From Legionella brunensis (lineage in GTDB: Bacteria; Pseudomonadota; Gammaproteobacteria; Legionellales; Legionellaceae), in NCBI RefSeq assembly GCF_001467025.1, contig NZ_LNXV01000034.1:1-64000 (forward strand): a DNA stretch of 64,000 bases. Direction: 5' to 3'. Position 1 is the stretch's first letter, and each line of letters begins with the position of its first letter. This document shows, one piece after another, positions 31,660-58,412 of the stretch. Below the pieces are notes generated by a model. That model was given only the letters and a program-made list of their open reading frames with translations. It was not told the origin of the DNA and searched no databases. Made by a program: the position numbers and the translations under genes.

Positions 31660-31728
31660 CAGCCCATAGCAAGTTGCAAGTAGATACTGACTTTAAACAT
31701 ATTTTTAAGACAGTATCTAGGCTTAACG

Positions 31729-33048
31729 TTAGATCGTAGGGGATGAACGTTGCGAAAGAGATTCGTAGTTATGTAATTCTTCTATAAATGACTCATAACC
31801 TTCGGACTCTATGATTTTGATAACACTAAATAGAGTGGGATTATTAATTTCTTTGACTACTTCGTGCAATTCAGCACTTCTGTTAGTAACTGCATAGGTA
31901 TGATACATAATGGACACCGGGAACAAACGATTTTTTATCTCATCCTCCTTGTCGGCATATCTTTGAATTAATCGACTGCAGTCATCCAGTTTAGGAAAAT
32001 TTGCATGGAAATAACGAAACAATAACAACATATAGGTAGTAAAAATAAAGAACTCACGGCTTCTTTGTACTTCACCTGGAAGATATAGCTGTCTTCTAAC
32101 ATTTGCAACAAAAGGATAACTCATTGGTCTTCTATCAGGATTAAGTAGGACTGAGGCGGTCAATTCATTCTGGGGAAATTTTTTATGAATAAGCTTTACC
32201 GTCTCTATTAATAAGGGAGTGCCATTCTTGTTCCAAACCTCTGTAAGTACAGGTATAAGAGTCTTTAACTTACCTATTATTGGCGCAGTAATATCTTTAT
32301 TTTCTTTATCTAAATCCTCAGCATGCTGAAAAAAAAGCTGCGGTACATTGTTTTCTTTTAAGTATTCATTAAATGATTTATCTGCAACGATTGATTTAGT
32401 TTGAGTTGCAAACAAACTTTCTAAAATCAACTGATAAGAATTGGTATCTACTACTAATAGCTTCCAAGCGCTCTTCATTTCACACTCACGCATTGGCTCA
32501 AATATTAGTTCCATTACCTTACTGCCAGGAAATGTTATTTGATAAGCTGAGAGCATAATTGCCATAAGAATAAGATTCCTTTTGAACTCCTTAGATTTTC
32601 CCTTAAATATTTCCAGGGAGTAAATTTGATCGAGATCCGTAAAATGCTCATCCACATAGAGAGAGAGTAATGAGCGATAAACTTCGCAGACAAAAGGATC
32701 GAACGCCCTTTCCGATATATTTTTCACCCCCAAATATGCCAAATAAGGAAGTACAGAAATCATCAGCGGGTTACTCATCGGCTCATCTTTGTGCGTTAAT
32801 ACCAATGAGACAGCAAGCTCATTTCGGGAAAACTGTTTTCCCAGCAATTTTATAGTATTTGTTAAAAGACGCTCTCCTTTTTCCTTCCATACTTGTGAGA
32901 ATGTTTCAATTTCGGCTTCTAATTTTTTTATTTCCCGTTTGTCTATGGGAGGGATACTACCCCAATCAAAAACAACTCCATATTCAAACCTAAGTGATGG
33001 AATTGAGAGCTCGATATTCGATTCATTAAAAAATTTTACCTGATACAT
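31729..33048 (-). CDS. Hypothetical protein with two copies of one domain
   Basis: The start is ATG 33048 with AGGGAG 6 nt upstream (439 aa); a longer frame from 33090 lacks such a site. The protein is cytosolic. Its two halves look homologous: 'VWKEKGERLLTNTIKLL' near 54 and 'VWNKNGTPLLIETVKLI' in the second half are each followed by KxFxxNEL, a 'PMSxP' stretch and a long helical region. I know no family for it. Such an isolated duplicated helical protein is a reasonable effector candidate, with no direct proof. Confidence 0.7.
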   Translation of the reverse strand: MYQVKFFNESNIELSIPSLRFEYGVVFDWGSIPPIDKREIKKLEAEIETFSQVWKEKGERLLTNTIKLLGKQFSRNELAVSLVLTHKDEPMSNPLMISVLPYLAYLGVKNISERAFDPFVCEVYRSLLSLYVDEHFTDLDQIYSLEIFKGKSKEFKRNLILMAIMLSAYQITFPGSKVMELIFEPMRECEMKSAWKLLVVDTNSYQLILESLFATQTKSIVADKSFNEYLKENNVPQLFFQHAEDLDKENKDITAPIIGKLKTLIPVLTEVWNKNGTPLLIETVKLIHKKFPQNELTASVLLNPDRRPMSYPFVANVRRQLYLPGEVQRSREFFIFTTYMLLLFRYFHANFPKLDDCSRLIQRYADKEDEIKNRLFPVSIMYHTYAVTNRSAELHEVVKEINNPTLFSVIKIIESEGYESFIEELHNYESLSQRSSPTI

Positions 33049-52816: not shown

Positions 52817-54118
52817 ATGAATCCAGGCTATTGGCAACGTACCGCATTTCTATTCCTACTCGCAATCTATGGCCTATTGTTTTATTTTATTTTAACTTTC
52901 CAACAAGGAATCGATTTCGCCTCATTCTATTCAGCCTCACAAATGCTAACGATAGGAGATAACCCTTACCAAAGTTTATTCGCTACTTATTTGCCTATTG
53001 CTAAAAAATTAGCGGCTAATCTTAACCCCCCCATTGTATTAATACTATTCAATCCTTTAATACAGTTTAACTACAATACAGCTTTAACCATCTGGTGGCT
53101 GACTTCTTTGATTGTAGGGTTAATTGCAGCCCGAATAACCTTTAAACACGTTTTTTCACCTGATTTTTTTAAAAATAATTGGGCAACCTTGTACCTCATT
53201 TATTTAGCCTTTTTTGCCACCCTCATGGACGCAGCCATTACGCAATTAGGAGCCTTGCTACTATTTTGTATCATGTTTGGCTATCACTTCTATCTGAAAG
53301 GCAGCGATTATTTTGCAGGAATTCTTTGGGGATTTATTATTGCCCTAAAATTTTTTCCAGCGTTATTGTTTTTATGGGTTTTGCTGCAAAAGCGTTATAA
53401 AGTATTTACAGTAATGCTTTCTGTTTCAGCGCTGCTGTCCATTATTCCCATATTTATCTGCGGAATTGATATTTATCAGCAATATTTTTCCATGATGTCA
53501 CAGGTATCATGGTATGGTGACAGTTGGAATGCTTCACTTTATGGTTTTCTCTTTCGTATACTCATTAATGTCCATGATAAGACACAAACTTTTTTATTTG
53601 TGAATCTTGTTTACGGCATTCTATTTCTAATTTTTTTGCTATGGTACTTAAAAAGTATCGTTAAGATGTCTGTCGATTCAAAGAATGAACAATCATTTGC
53701 CCTAACCTTATGCATGATGTTGTTGTTGAGTCCTTTTGGGTGGTTATATTATTTTTCCTTACTGCTTTTCCCTCTGGCATTTACCTGGAAAGTTAACTTT
53801 GCTGATGCCGAAAATACTAAAAATAAAATATTATGGTTTTGCAGTTTATTTCTGCTCAACTTTCCCATGGACTATCTATCAAGCAAAAAAATGTTCACTG
53901 TCACGAACAAACTTTGCTTAAGCTCACTTTATTTTTACGGATTATTACTACTGATATATCTTCTCCGTGCACAAAAAATTCCCCTCTATCATGATCAGAA
54001 ATCTTTAAAAGCCAATTTCAAATATTTACCTATCCTAGGAATTATTTTTGGCTTTGGCATTTTCGTGCCTACTTTGAGTTTTGTCGGTCGACTTTTTGAT
54101 ATCAACTGGTCAAATTAA
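52817..54118 (+). CDS. GT87-family (DUF2029) membrane glycosyltransferase
   Basis: A 433-aa protein with about ten membrane segments. The first periplasmic loop has the motif DFASFYSASQMLTIGDNPYQS (the catalytic acidic residue is in the FQQGIDF stretch), and KFFPALLF is typical. Such enzymes transfer mannose or another sugar from a polyprenyl-linked donor. It is a single gene. Confidence 0.82.
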   Translation: MNPGYWQRTAFLFLLAIYGLLFYFILTFQQGIDFASFYSASQMLTIGDNPYQSLFATYLPIAKKLAANLNPPIVLILFNPLIQFNYNTALTIWWLTSLIVGLIAARITFKHVFSPDFFKNNWATLYLIYLAFFATLMDAAITQLGALLLFCIMFGYHFYLKGSDYFAGILWGFIIALKFFPALLFLWVLLQKRYKVFTVMLSVSALLSIIPIFICGIDIYQQYFSMMSQVSWYGDSWNASLYGFLFRILINVHDKTQTFLFVNLVYGILFLIFLLWYLKSIVKMSVDSKNEQSFALTLCMMLLLSPFGWLYYFSLLLFPLAFTWKVNFADAENTKNKILWFCSLFLLNFPMDYLSSKKMFTVTNKLCLSSLYFYGLLLLIYLLRAQKIPLYHDQKSLKANFKYLPILGIIFGFGIFVPTLSFVGRLFDINWSN

Positions 54119-54165: not shown

Positions 54166-54194
54166 TTGACAAATGCTCTCTTGAGGTCTAACGT
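54166..54194 (+). promoter_or_regulatory. Probable promoter of the amidoligase operon
   Basis: A perfect -35 TTGACA (54166-54171), 17-bp spacer and a weak -10 TAACGT (54189-54194), 43 nt before the ATG at 54238. The A/T-rich stretch before it is UP-like. Confidence 0.5.
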
Positions 54195-54237
54195 TAAACG
54201 CATGCATAGATAAATATCTGGTTCAACCAATCTGACC

Positions 54238-54957
54238 ATGATCGATCTGACTATACATACTCAACCTGACGATGAAACGTGTGGTCCTACGAGTTTGCAC
54301 GCAATTTATCGTTATTATGGTTTAGATCTTGACTTGGCTGAGGTCATTAAAAACGTAGAGCGCTCTCTTTCTGGAGGTACACTTGCGCCAATGTTAGGCA
54401 AGCATGCGCTACTTCATGGTTTTAAAGTGATCCTTTATATCAATAACCTTAACATTTTTGATCCCACCTGGTTTGACTACGAACAGGGGAAAGCTTGCCA
54501 GAATTTATTACGCATTAAATTGAATGCCCAAATGAAACACAAAAGAACAAAAGGAATTGTACACGCAAGCAGAGCCTATCTTGATTATCTTGAATTAGGG
54601 GGTGAGGTACGTTTTCGCACCCTAAGTGTGCAATTACTTAAAGATTATTTTGCTCAAAATATTCCTATTCTAACTGGTTTGAGCGCCACTTACCTTTATC
54701 GTAGCTCCCGTGAGCGTTACATTAATAGCGAAGCTATCTACGATGATATTCGCGGCACCCCTTGTGGGCATTTTGTTGTTTTATGTGGCTATGACGATAA
54801 GAAAAGGCTAGTAGTAGTCGCTGATCCTCATCGAGAAAACCCTATTTCTGAGGATAATTATTATAAAGTAAGTAGTAATCGTTTAATTAATGCCATCATG
54901 GTTGGGGTATTAACCTATGATGCTAACTTAATCATAATTCAACCCAAAGAGCACTGA
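54238..54957 (+). CDS. C39-like cysteine peptidase
   Basis: A 239-aa papain-fold peptidase. Cys15 lies in DDETCGPTSLHAIYRYYG, His178 in CGHFVVLCGYDD and Asp196 in VADPH, making a full Cys-His-Asp triad. It has no signal peptide and no transporter fusion, unlike bacteriocin C39 peptidases. It is first in a four-gene operon, 0 nt ahead of the ATP-grasp gene. Its likely job is to trim or release a peptide built by the ligases. Confidence 0.85.
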   Translation: MIDLTIHTQPDDETCGPTSLHAIYRYYGLDLDLAEVIKNVERSLSGGTLAPMLGKHALLHGFKVILYINNLNIFDPTWFDYEQGKACQNLLRIKLNAQMKHKRTKGIVHASRAYLDYLELGGEVRFRTLSVQLLKDYFAQNIPILTGLSATYLYRSSRERYINSEAIYDDIRGTPCGHFVVLCGYDDKKRLVVVADPHRENPISEDNYYKVSSNRLINAIMVGVLTYDANLIIIQPKEH

Positions 54958-56412
54958 ATGGAAACACTAATTATAACGGACGACCCCTCGGGGTGGGAGT
55001 TTTTAAGCCCACTTGCTACCATAGTCCAAGCTTCAGAGTATTTATCCAGTGAGAATTATTATCAAAGCAAATCAATCCGAGTTATAAATCTCTGCCACTC
55101 CTACAACCACCAAACTATAGGTTACTATGTGTCCTTACTTGCGCATGCTCGTGATCATAAGGCCATACCCTCTGTGCACAGCATTCAAGATGCACTTAAT
55201 GCAGAATTATCTAAATTCATATCTCAGGATGTAGATGAGGAGATTCAAAATAGTCTACATGAAATTAAAGCAGACGAGTTCATTTTAAGTGTCTACTTCG
55301 GTCAAAATATGGCCAAGTGTCATGCAAATCTTGCCAAAAAACTCCATAGCTTATTCCCGTTGCCATTGATGAGATTTACTTTAGAGAAAAAGAAACAATG
55401 GCGCATCAAAACATTACAAATTTTATCTCTGGCAGAAATTCCGGAACATCATCGAGATTTCATGCAACAATCTGCCGAGAGTTATTTATCTAAAAAACGC
55501 TTTCACCAGTGGCGTAAAAAGCAACGCTTCCATGACCTCGCTATTTTGATTGATCCAAGTGAAGCCAATGCGCCTTCCAATAAAAAAGCTCTGGAAATCT
55601 TTGTAACTACTGGCGAGGCGATGGGCTTAAATGTTGATTTCATTGAAAAAAGTGACACTAAATCTCTCGCGGAATATGATGCATTATTTATTCGAGCGAC
55701 AACATCTGTTAATCACTACACTTATCGAATGGCAAGACGGGCTGCACAAGAAAATCTGGTAGTCATCGATGATCCCCAATCTATTATCAAATGCAGTAAC
55801 AAAGTGTACTTGGCTGAGTTAATGCGCAGCCATCAAATCTTAACCCCGGAAACCATTTTCATCAGTAAATTTGATAAAGAAATTCCCAATATCCAGTTTC
55901 CTTGTGTACTCAAAAGACCTGATAGTGCTTTCTCCCATGGGGTAGTTAAACTTGATGATAGTAAAGCATTGCAAAAGTCATTAACCCAGTTTTTCAAAAT
56001 TTCTGATTTGGTATTGATTCAGCCCTTTATTCCTACAGAATATGATTGGCGAATCGGTATTCTAGATAATAAACCTATTTTTGCTTGCCATTATTATATG
56101 GCAAAAAATCATTGGCAAATTTACAACTGGGATGCCAACAATGAAAAACGTGAGGGAGCCACAGAAACTATTCCATTACATGAAGTGCCTGAAGCTATCA
56201 TTAAAACAGCACTAAAATGTACACGTCTAATTGGAGATGGCTTGTATGGTGTCGATATAAAAAGTCATGGCGACAAACATTATGTCATTGAAGTCAATGA
56301 TAATCCAAATATAGACTTCGGAATTGAGGACAAGATTTTGGGTGAATCTCTCTATCAACATGTCATGAGTGTATTTTTACAACGCATTCGTAGGAAACAT
56401 GGCTATGTCTAA
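54958..56412 (+). CDS. RimK-like ATP-grasp ligase with RLAN-type N-terminal domain
   Basis: A 484-aa protein. The N-terminal half (about 1-190) resembles the domain found before RimK-like ATP-grasp modules (RLAN). The second half (about 195-484) is an ATP-grasp fold: VLKRPDSAFSHGVVKL glycine-rich loop, LIQPFIPTEYDWRIGILD, and the Mg-binding VIEVNDNPN (Glu445, Asn447). Such enzymes form peptide or amide bonds, typically adding glutamate or other amino acids to a carboxylate through an acyl phosphate. It overlaps the next gene by 14 nt. Confidence 0.88.
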   Translation: METLIITDDPSGWEFLSPLATIVQASEYLSSENYYQSKSIRVINLCHSYNHQTIGYYVSLLAHARDHKAIPSVHSIQDALNAELSKFISQDVDEEIQNSLHEIKADEFILSVYFGQNMAKCHANLAKKLHSLFPLPLMRFTLEKKKQWRIKTLQILSLAEIPEHHRDFMQQSAESYLSKKRFHQWRKKQRFHDLAILIDPSEANAPSNKKALEIFVTTGEAMGLNVDFIEKSDTKSLAEYDALFIRATTSVNHYTYRMARRAAQENLVVIDDPQSIIKCSNKVYLAELMRSHQILTPETIFISKFDKEIPNIQFPCVLKRPDSAFSHGVVKLDDSKALQKSLTQFFKISDLVLIQPFIPTEYDWRIGILDNKPIFACHYYMAKNHWQIYNWDANNEKREGATETIPLHEVPEAIIKTALKCTRLIGDGLYGVDIKSHGDKHYVIEVNDNPNIDFGIEDKILGESLYQHVMSVFLQRIRRKHGYV

Positions 56413-57628
56413 TTACCCTATTTTTTCTGTCCTTGGAATTGAAATTGAGTACATGCTTGTCGATTGCCACAATCTTAATGTGCAACCCCAAAGTGATCTT
56501 GTCCTGCAAACCTTGGCCGGTGAACTCATTAATGAAGTGAAATTGGATGATATTGCCGTTAGTAATGAACTCGTTATGCATGTATTGGAGCTAAAAAATA
56601 ATGGCCCTAAACCACCCGATGCGCCTATTGCCAAGCAATTTCAGCAAACTATAGAACAATTACAACCATTGCTGGCTGCTCATAATCTTCAACTGCTACC
56701 AACCGGTGCGCATCCATGGATGAATCCGCTCAAAGAAACTAAACGCTGGCCCCATGGCAATCGTGATATATATCACCAATTTGATGCCATTTTTAATTGC
56801 CAAGGCCATGGATGGGCAAATCTGCAAAGTATGCATGTCAATTTACCTTTTGCTAATGATGAAGAATTTTGCCAGCTACATAATGCTATTCGTTTGCTTC
56901 TCCCCCTATTACCTGCCTTAGCTGCAAGTACCCCTTTCTTAGACGGCAAGAAAACTGGAATGAAGGATTCTCGTTTATATTTTTATGGAAAAAATCAACA
57001 AAGCATCCCCCTAATCAGCGGCGACATTATTCCTGAGTTTATTGGCAGCGAAGCACAATACCGACAAGAGATCTTAGACCCAATGTACCAAGCCATTAGC
57101 CCTTTTGATCCACAAGGAATTCTGCAGTACGAATGGCTTAATTCAAGGGCTGCTATTCCCAAATTTGAGTACAATGCTATTGAAATTCGAATCCTAGATT
57201 CACAAGAATGCGTACAAGCAGACATTGCCATTGCCTTAACCATCCATGCAATCCTAAAATATTGGCAAAATAATTCTTCATACCATTTAGATAACCCCTG
57301 TGAAACCAAGCGTTTAAAGAGCATTTATGATCAAACTATTAAAGACGGCTTTGCGGTGCTCGTGGAGGACAGTGAATTATTTAGACAATGGCAGTTACCT
57401 TCACGCACGATGAGCACTCGTAACGTTTGGTCACATTTGATTGAGAAAGTCAGTGGCGAACTTGATCAAAGTACACAGCAAGTATTGGAATTTATCTTAA
57501 GTCAAGGAAACTTAAGTGAACGTCTTTTAAGTGCTTGTGGCAATGTAATTCAACATACTACGCTAACCCATATTTATCGCCAGCTTACTCAATGCTTGTT
57601 GACTAATCAATTATTTAATCCAACATGA
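56399..57628 (+). CDS. GCS2-type glutamate-cysteine ligase-like carboxylate-amine ligase
   Basis: Start ATG 56399 (ATG 56405 is also possible), 409 aa. It belongs to the GCS2/YbdK-like group: the metal-binding GIEIEYML (Glu15, Glu17), LLPTGAHPWM, WANLQSMHVNLPF and the ILDSQECVQ region. Enzymes of this fold activate a glutamate gamma-carboxyl as phosphate and join it to an amine. It is not next to gshB, so classic glutathione synthesis is unlikely. Confidence 0.85.
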   Translation: MAMSNYPIFSVLGIEIEYMLVDCHNLNVQPQSDLVLQTLAGELINEVKLDDIAVSNELVMHVLELKNNGPKPPDAPIAKQFQQTIEQLQPLLAAHNLQLLPTGAHPWMNPLKETKRWPHGNRDIYHQFDAIFNCQGHGWANLQSMHVNLPFANDEEFCQLHNAIRLLLPLLPALAASTPFLDGKKTGMKDSRLYFYGKNQQSIPLISGDIIPEFIGSEAQYRQEILDPMYQAISPFDPQGILQYEWLNSRAAIPKFEYNAIEIRILDSQECVQADIAIALTIHAILKYWQNNSSYHLDNPCETKRLKSIYDQTIKDGFAVLVEDSELFRQWQLPSRTMSTRNVWSHLIEKVSGELDQSTQQVLEFILSQGNLSERLLSACGNVIQHTTLTHIYRQLTQCLLTNQLFNPT

Positions 57629-58326
57629 AAGCTAAGCTCCTTGTTTTAAGTTGCGAGCATGCAGTAAATACTGTTCCTTCTATTTACCAAAAGTATTTTA
57701 ATGGAAATGAAGCATTATTGGATACTCATCGAGCCATAGATTTCGGCGCGCTTACAATTGCCAATTATTTAAGCAATTTTTTTGGCTGTGAACTGATCCA
57801 AGCTCGCGCTACCAGATTACTTATTGATTGTAATCGTCGTTTGTCTAACCCTAATTGTTTCTCAGAAATTACTGCCTCTTTACCTAAAGCAGAGAAGCAA
57901 GCGATTATTCAAGAATACTACACGCCTTTTCGCGAACAGGTCGTCAACCTTGTCAAACATCACATCCGTCGAGGATATCAAGTCTGGCATCTATCGATAC
58001 ATAGTTTTACGCCTATTATGAATAACCTTGTTCGAAATGCAGATGTTAGCTTCCTTTATGACCCAAGACGAAGCCCTGAAAAAAATTTGGCTAAACAATG
58101 GCAATTGGCATTTAAACAGCAAGTGAAAGACTTGCGTGTTCGTCTGAATTATCCTTATCGTGGGGTTACTGATGGTTTTACCAGTTTTTTACGTACTCAA
58201 TTTAATGAAGATAAATACCTGGGCCTCGAAATTGAGAGCAATCAAGCATTAATGCGCGACAACCAATCTGTCGCTTACGTTGCCAAAGCTTTAGCGACCA
58301 CTCTTAAATCCGTATATGTGCGCTAA
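57625..58326 (+). CDS. N-formylglutamate amidohydrolase-like zinc enzyme
   Basis: A 233-aa protein with the FGase family pattern: VLSCEHA (Glu11, His12), HRAIDFGA, LLIDCNRR (Asp68, Asn70, Arg71) and HLSIHSFTP (His126). Family members split acyl-glutamate bonds with zinc. No other histidine-degradation gene is present, so it is more likely a partner of the ligases, working on a glutamate-containing product. It overlaps the preceding gene by an ATGA. Confidence 0.85.
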   Translation: MKAKLLVLSCEHAVNTVPSIYQKYFNGNEALLDTHRAIDFGALTIANYLSNFFGCELIQARATRLLIDCNRRLSNPNCFSEITASLPKAEKQAIIQEYYTPFREQVVNLVKHHIRRGYQVWHLSIHSFTPIMNNLVRNADVSFLYDPRRSPEKNLAKQWQLAFKQQVKDLRVRLNYPYRGVTDGFTSFLRTQFNEDKYLGLEIESNQALMRDNQSVAYVAKALATTLKSVYVR

Positions 58327-58375: not shown

Positions 58376-58412
58376 AGCCTGTATTTCCCGCATGCATCAT
58401 ACAGGCTATTTC
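58376..58412 (+). terminator. Probable terminator of the amidoligase operon
   Basis: AGCCTGTAT (58376-58384) and ATACAGGCT (58399-58407) pair perfectly (9 bp, 14-nt loop) and are followed on the plus strand by ATTTCTT. It begins 50 nt after the last stop and ends just before the convergent yjgR-like gene. Confidence 0.5.

What the first reader, a model, noticed from the sequence alone, without database searches (positions are those of the whole stretch)
54238..58326. Four-gene amidoligase operon: C39-like peptidase, RLAN/ATP-grasp ligase, GCS2-type ligase, N-formylglutamate amidohydrolase-like enzyme
Two ligases of unrelated folds (RimK-like ATP-grasp and GCS2) are flanked by two hydrolases that cut amide bonds. 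The gene junctions are 0 nt, a 14-nt overlap and an ATGA, so this is one unit behind a TTGACA promoter and before a hairpin. Key residues of all four look intact. From comparative genomics, such amidoligase clusters are predicted to make small peptides or peptide tags, but products are largely unknown. I infer a glutamate-containing oligopeptide, or glutamate tagging of a protein, that is built by the two ligases and edited by the two hydrolases. All four lack signal peptides, so the chemistry is cytosolic.
Basis: partly seen in the sequence, partly recalled or inferred. Interest (0 to 1): 0.85.

Follow-up and report, generated by a model that had tools for sequence, protein, structure and literature searches.

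The report
Conserved two-ligase, two-hydrolase glutamyl operon
Four neighbouring genes encode two enzymes that build amide bonds and two that look able to cut them; the same set recurs in very distant bacteria, so it is probably an unstudied pathway for a small glutamate-type peptide.

Summary
In detail: four intact, abutting genes for a C39-like cysteine hydrolase, RLAN/RimK-like ATP-grasp ligase, GCS2 ligase and FGase. The order is identical in 21 of 21 examined genus loci and recurs in Gammaproteobacteria MAGs and in the phyla of a Planctomycetota and a Leptospiraceae MAG. Operonic RLAN proteins group together. In some Planctomycetota-phylum loci both ligases form one ORF. Probable catalytic residues are nearly invariant. 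Separate gshA and gshB exist, so this is unlikely to be the glutathione route. A conserved promoter precedes the operon; a terminator is possible but unproven. Most other Pseudomonadota RLAN genes lack these partners; 32 of 74 sit beside a GNAT-DUF3335 protein whose DUF3335 is remotely homologous to the operon's C39. Best reading: a cytosolic glutamyl-peptide pathway with glutathione-like logic; the papain-fold enzyme resembles C39 peptidases and phytochelatin synthase equally. Substrates are unknown. A new variant of the amidoligase-cluster kind; whether it is already published could not be settled.

The parts
54166..54197 (+). conserved promoter-like element: TTGACA at 54166-54171, 17-nt spacer, TAACGT at 54189-54194 inside the invariant block GTCTAACGTTAA (54186-54197; contains the palindrome TAACGTTA)
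   Evidence: invariant in 9 of 9 aligned upstream regions; 17 of 20 strict, 18 of 20 loose in genus loci; position
54238..54957 (+). C39-like papain-fold cysteine hydrolase or acyltransferase (Q9, C15, H178, D196)
54958..56412 (+). RLAN domain plus RimK-like ATP-grasp ligase
56399..57628 (+). GCS2-type carboxylate-amine ligase
   Evidence: Pfam 3e-27; E15, E17, E262, R264 invariant where aligned, 130 rows; only two solved relatives up to E 0.01, YbdK and an unnamed protein
57625..58326 (+). FGase-family (N-formylglutamate amidohydrolase-like) hydrolase
   Evidence: Pfam 3e-21; closest solved relative 2ODF E 2.9e-31, 2Q7S (named N-formylglutamate amidohydrolase) 1.4e-3; E11, H12 and H126 in 104 of 104 rows
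58376..58407 (+). hairpin after the operon, possible but unproven terminator
   Evidence: 9 pairs, 14-nt loop, then ATTTCTTA; region z -0.73; outside the loop limit of the terminator scan

Best explanation
A co-transcribed cytosolic pathway that makes and trims a small non-ribosomal glutamyl peptide, with the same logic as glutathione metabolism but separate from it. Proposed steps: (1) GCS2 activates a carboxylate, probably the gamma-carboxylate of glutamate, and joins it to an amine; (2) the RLAN/ATP-grasp ligase, which resembles RimK, LysX and ArgX, joins the alpha-amine of an amino acid (probably Glu) to a carboxylate of the same scaffold; (3) the papain-fold C39-like enzyme uses its Cys-His-Asp site to cut or transfer an amide or isopeptide bond of the product, as phytochelatin synthase does with glutathione; (4) the FGase-like enzyme hydrolyses an N-acyl-glutamate-type amide, for turnover or removal of a cap. 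Shown: conserved linkage, conserved residues, RLAN and GCS2 in one ORF in some Planctomycetota-phylum loci, separate gshA/gshB in the genome, conserved promoter element, purifying selection. Inferred: co-transcription, all substrates, the order of steps, and the direction of the two hydrolases.
Against: No substrate or activity is known to me for any homolog found. FGase was not detected in 15 of 40 Planctomycetota-phylum loci and 8 of 22 of the other phylum; C39 was not detected in 6 of 40, and in 9 of 62 loci of the GCS2 scan; some of these lie at contig ends. GCS2 stands alone in 5 of 22. Outside Legionellaceae (19 loci) the four gene distances correlate only 0.25-0.81, so parts may have been exchanged. 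The C39 fold match does not separate peptidase from transpeptidase (rows tied). RLAN model pTM is only 0.57. The ATP-grasp part looks like RimK/LysX/ArgX, which also modify proteins or carrier proteins, so the glutathione analogy is loose. RLAN genes without any of the partners looked for are common (30 of 74).
Confidence: 0.45

Rival explanations
1. Protein modification: the ligases add glutamate or a glutamyl tag to a protein or small carrier protein, and C39 and FGase remove it or prepare the acceptor end.
For: The ATP-grasp part is closest in fold to ArgX and LysX (carrier protein LysW in titles 3vpb and 5k2m) and RimK (RpsF in title 5zk6). A ligase-eraser pair is published for RimK/RimB (passages of PMC12239564).
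Against: No carrier or substrate gene is evident: flanking genes differ between lineages and no convincing small ORF was seen in the gaps examined. The only named solved relative of GCS2 is YbdK.
Confidence: 0.2
2. Amine salvage or detoxification: GCS2 gamma-glutamylates an amine and the hydrolases recover Glu, as in gamma-glutamyl-amine utilisation.
For: Stand-alone GCS2 relatives sit beside amino-acid-type ABC transporter genes (Pfam of three L240 proteins; same clusters in L242 and L245).
Against: No flanking cluster is shared by more than 5 of 29 loci, so no oxidase or transporter is seen to travel with the set (most flanking genes were not annotated). A second ligase in one ORF with GCS2 points to building, not breakdown.
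Confidence: 0.12
3. Tailoring of a ribosomal peptide (RiPP-like) whose precursor gene lies elsewhere.
For: ATP-grasp ligases and C39 proteases occur in RiPP clusters (passages of PMC8939145).
Against: No precursor-like ORF was evident in the gaps examined. The C39 here is a free protein without an ABC transporter domain. The RLAN gene is in 22 of 22 genus genomes, unlike typical RiPP clusters (the last point is general knowledge).
Confidence: 0.06
4. Ordinary glutathione or gamma-glutamylcysteine synthesis with GCS2 as gshA.
For: GCS2 matches several glutamate-cysteine ligase models, all below cut-off.
Against: Own gshA (TIGR02049) and gshB present side by side. 42 of 50 genomes with the system or its ligases have no gshB over the cut-off, though 24 of these have weaker matches to that ATP-grasp model.
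Confidence: 0.04

Closest known systems
RLAN + GNAT-DUF3335 gene pairs of Pseudomonadota
   Same: RLAN/ATP-grasp ligase beside a papain-like C39-type domain; the operon C39 and DUF3335 are remote homologs (hhalign probability 97, E 8e-11, Cys and His motifs aligned). GNAT and DUF3335 within 1.5 kb on the same strand in 32 of 74 non-genus RLAN loci; 8 more have GNAT only, 1 DUF3335 only, 3 GNAT fused to RLAN, 30 none (eight proteins checked with Pfam).
   Different: They have GNAT instead of GCS2, no FGase by the operon profiles, and their RLAN proteins fall outside the operonic group.
Glutathione synthesis (gamma-GCS plus ATP-grasp GshB; fused GshF, recalled)
   Same: A glutamate ligase plus an ATP-grasp ligase, sometimes in one ORF.
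   Different: GCS2 and RLAN are not the gshA/gshB families of this genome; the fusion order is ATP-grasp first; the ATP-grasp part is RimK/LysX/ArgX-like.
RimK and LysX/ArgX ligases
   Same: ATP-grasp fold.
   Different: Extra RLAN domain and fixed partners; below the TIGR00768 cut-off (72.6 against 143.4 bits).
Phytochelatin synthase and C39 peptidases
   Different: 15 to 27% identity over the aligned residues of these rows; no Pfam phytochelatin-synthase hit at E up to 1; no ABC transporter domain.
Amidoligase clusters predicted by Iyer and others 2009 (PMID 20023723)
   Same: Title and citing passages only: amidoligases predicted to make novel metabolites and peptide modifications.
   Different: The paper itself is not held; whether it lists this exact four-gene set is unknown to me.

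Membership tests
RLAN/RimK-like ATP-grasp ligase | PF14401 and PF08443 over the gathering score | tested here: met
   157.7 bits against 25, 38.8 against 21; residues
RimK family model TIGR00768 | score over the curated cut-off | tested here: not met
   72.6 against 143.4 bits
GCS2 carboxylate-amine ligase | PF04107 over the gathering score | tested here: met
   96.2 against 21 bits; residues
Glutamate-cysteine ligase (GSH route) | score over a glutamate-cysteine ligase, YbdK or EgtA cut-off in NCBIfam | tested here: not met
   best TIGR02050 66.7 against 176.4 bits; separate gshA present
FGase superfamily | PF05013 over the gathering score | tested here: met
   77 against 28.9 bits; residues in 104 rows
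N-formylglutamate amidohydrolase (HutG) activity | hydrolysis of N-formylglutamate | not testable with these tools
   closest solved relative is 2ODF, a hypothetical protein; it is the only FGase match in the genome
C39-like peptidases | PF13529 over the gathering score, Q/C/H/D kept | tested here: met
   41.2 against 24 bits; residues
DUF3335 (PF11814) | Pfam match | tested here: not met
   not listed at E up to 1; profile-level homology only
Phytochelatin synthase-like fold | fold match standing above other papain folds | tested here: inconclusive
RLAN-GNAT-DUF3335 system | GNAT partner | tested here: not met
   no hit of my GNAT profile in any of the 21 genus loci; no GNAT in the four proteins
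Known or candidate defence system (PADLOC 2023) | PADLOC profile match | tested here: not met
   0 families at E up to 0.01 for all four proteins

The most novel reading that the evidence does not exclude
A previously uncharacterised class of small gamma-glutamyl peptide, built by a GCS2 plus RLAN/ATP-grasp pair and remodelled by a phytochelatin-synthase-like papain enzyme and an N-acyl-glutamate hydrolase, used as a core metabolite by Legionellaceae and by many bacteria of the Planctomycetota phylum and of the phylum of the Leptospiraceae-labelled MAG; in 41 of 42 tested genomes of the latter two no gshB over the cut-off was found.
Probability: 0.3. Interest if true: 0.82.

Novelty: new variant of a known kind. 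Interest (0 to 1): 0.6.

Why it matters
A four-enzyme unit kept in the same order in bacteria separated at phylum level, with nearly invariant probable catalytic residues and natural one-ORF forms of its two ligases, marks an unsolved biochemical pathway rather than a lineage curiosity. The one-ORF form gives a direct route to assay both ligases at once. GNAT in place of GCS2 beside the RLAN/papain-like pair suggests a modular family of amide-making systems in which the capping enzyme is exchanged. If the product is a glutathione-like metabolite, it would matter for stress physiology in groups where a typical gshB is seldom found.

Tried and rejected
Glutathione synthesis by GCS2: disfavoured because separate gshA/gshB exist (the PF04262 search was negative, but TIGR02049 was positive). 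Defence system: no PADLOC hit. Terminator: left open. Small precursor or carrier ORF: none convincing in the upstream gap or in five long C39/RLAN gaps; ORFs of 24-28 aa in two gaps only. A replacement for FGase where it is missing: Pfam of a downstream gene in ten such loci gave TPR, MFS, HEAT or menaquinone-synthesis hits in one locus each and nothing in six, so no consistent substitute. The long ORFs after FGase in some relatives first seemed to match FGase (iterated profile); with the single-pass profile only one still matches, at 1.8e-5, so I treat this as profile drift. In the RLAN fold comparison no glutathione synthetase appears among the 50 rows shown; a list filled by related families says little about others. 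Literature: searches showed no paper describing this operon; some searches listed papers (30 of 33, 20 and 3), of which I looked at passages of six. Most subscription papers are missing from the library. My recollection that Iyer 2009 discusses RLAN neighbourhoods is unverified.
Full report
Observation. The longest ORF for the third gene starts at GTG 56369, but ATG 56399 gives the 14-nt overlap. The promoter looked weak in the window alone, yet it stands up in comparison: TTGACAAA, 12 variable bases, then GTCTAACGTTAA are kept in 9 of 9 upstream regions that I chose from the 21 genus loci, at a mean column identity of 47%. In 20 genus loci besides the window the element is found strictly in 17 and loosely in 18, and those 17 are the only strict matches in 281,834 bases. 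In other Legionellaceae loci, a set that includes some of the same genomes, it is found in 11 (strict) or 16 (loose) of 54, so it is mainly a feature of this genus. The hairpin after the operon has 9 pairs, a 14-nt loop and the tail ATTTCTTA; the scan cannot list loops above 8, and the region folds no better than shuffles (z -0.73), so a terminator is possible but not shown.

Organism. The window's genus has 22 genomes in the held set and all 22 carry the RLAN gene. The window is therefore very probably a Legionella in the NCBI sense. In its order 81 of 143 genomes have a RLAN match at E up to 1e-40; all 81 are of the same family, and some of these copies are solo.

Linkage. In 21 of 21 genus loci examined (the window plus 20 of the 21 other genomes) the order C39-RLAN-GCS2-FGase is identical. 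A scan of public genomes with the GCS2 alignment gave 62 loci, some of them the same genomes; 52 have the full order (pieces of broken genes counted as one; in one, L197, FGase lies 6 kb away), 8 lack C39, 1 lacks C39 and RLAN, 1 lacks FGase. Several of these lie at contig ends. The set includes Legionellales MAGs, two Gammaproteobacteria MAGs, one Planctomycetota MAG, one Hinthialibacteria MAG (C39 and RLAN frames broken) and one Leptospiraceae MAG. In the phylum of the Leptospiraceae-labelled MAG 23 of 247 genomes have a GCS2 match at E up to 1e-50; of 22 loci fetched besides the seed, 14 have all four genes, 3 have C39-RLAN-GCS2 and 5 have GCS2 alone. In the phylum of the Planctomycetota MAG 56 of 294 genomes match (57 places); I fetched 40 of the 56 places other than the seed, favouring long frames. 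Of these 40, 22 have the full order, 10 have C39-RLAN-GCS2, 6 have RLAN and GCS2 in one ORF (L283, L288-L292; one of them, L291, with all four functions; L292 holds only the end of RLAN), 1 has RLAN-GCS2-FG and 1 RLAN-GCS2. Pfam independently finds RLAN, RimK and GCS2 in the four one-ORF proteins I scanned, L283, L289, L290 and L291. No flanking cluster is shared by more than 5 of the 29 loci compared, so the four genes are the conserved unit. I chose 12 further Legionellaceae loci for odd or low-scoring copies as well as typical ones: 4 have all four genes, 1 has C39-RLAN and 7 RLAN only.

Contrast set. Of 398 Pseudomonadota genomes, 72 have RLAN, including the window's own. None of the 74 RLAN places in the other 71 genomes has operon-type C39, GCS2 or FGase in the stretch of up to 7 kb on each side, some cut by contig ends. 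Pfam GCS2 occurs in 40 of the 71, the nearest about 14 kb from RLAN by my reading of the coordinates. Instead 32 of 74 have a GNAT and a DUF3335 hit close by, usually one protein, 8 GNAT only, 1 DUF3335 only, 3 a GNAT fused to RLAN, and 30 none of these (eight proteins checked with Pfam). DUF3335 and the operon C39 are remote homologs (probability 97, E 8e-11; with a single sequence, probability 87). In a tree of 162 RLAN proteins of at least 440 aa (shorter pieces dropped; the Planctomycetota-phylum loci other than L203 were fetched later and are not in it) the 78 operonic ones fall on one side of a branch with support 1.0, together with 8 non-operonic Legionellaceae copies; the other 76, among them all 74 of the contrast set, fall on the other side. 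RLAN plus a papain-like domain is thus a shared kernel, with GNAT in one form and GCS2 (often with FGase) in the other.

Relation to glutathione. The genome has gshA of the TIGR02049 type beside gshB (PF04262 absent). Of 50 genomes that carry the system or at least its ligases, 8 have a gshB over the cut-off: all 4 Legionella, the L199 genome, both Gammaproteobacteria MAGs and the Leptospiraceae MAG; 24 more have only weaker matches and 18 none. Completeness of most of these genomes is not given. The operon is therefore probably not the glutathione pathway of its host, and not tied to it. FGase occurs once in the genome, so there is no second HutG-like copy.

Mechanism. I favour a non-ribosomal glutamyl-peptide pathway: GCS2 joins a (gamma-)glutamyl carboxylate to an amine, the RimK-type ligase joins an amino acid to a carboxylate, and the two hydrolases trim or transfer. 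The one-ORF ligases argue for consecutive steps on one scaffold. The likeness of the C39 enzyme to phytochelatin synthase, the enzyme that works on glutathione, fits that logic but cannot be told from a plain peptidase by fold. Protein tagging remains a serious rival because RimK, LysX and ArgX act on proteins or carrier proteins.

Literature. I read passages only of PMC4431377, PMC10318531, PMC8939145, PMC12239564, PMC2922099 and PMC3765264. PMC10318531 notes that DUF3335 proteins are often fused to GNAT domains and cites Iyer 2009. Iyer 2009 itself is not held. I therefore cannot say that this gene set is unpublished, only that eight searches of the held library did not show it.

Noticed in passing
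L160, L163, L169, L174, L177, L181, L187, L209, starting about 55 nt after the FGase gene: A very long ORF (about 1,450-1,690 aa) follows the operon in these Legionella loci; the two scanned (L160, L177) have no Pfam family over the cut-off.
   Followed up: partly
L190:2583-4084; C39/RLAN gaps of L160, L174, L181, L187, L209: L190 has two C39 genes in tandem; the long C39/RLAN gaps of the other loci carry what looks by eye like a decayed C39 end, suggesting duplication and loss.
   Followed up: partly
L255:5648-10469 (G447): Three RLAN genes in tandem on one strand in a Legionellaceae genome, with no operon-type C39, GCS2 or FGase in the 16-kb stretch.
   Followed up: no
window 52817-54118: A GT87-family glycosyltransferase-like protein gene lies just upstream on the same strand; its cluster appears in all 21 genus loci, upstream of C39 in 20 of them. 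Whether it accompanies the operon elsewhere was not tested.
   Followed up: partly
L237:4379-6001 and L239:7167-8717: In L237 the FGase is followed in the same ORF by an extra C-terminal part; in L239 the related part is a separate ORF with no Pfam hit.
   Followed up: partly
L240, L242, L245: Stand-alone GCS2 relatives sit beside amino-acid-type ABC transporter genes, a possible substrate clue.
   Followed up: no
window 31723-31734: A one-mismatch copy of the promoter block GTCTAACGTTAA on the minus strand; two or more such matches in the window occur in 5 of 100 shuffles. Whether it serves another gene was not examined.
   Followed up: no
L205:4862-5833: A histone-deacetylase-family gene lies immediately upstream of the operon in the Leptospiraceae MAG.
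   Followed up: no
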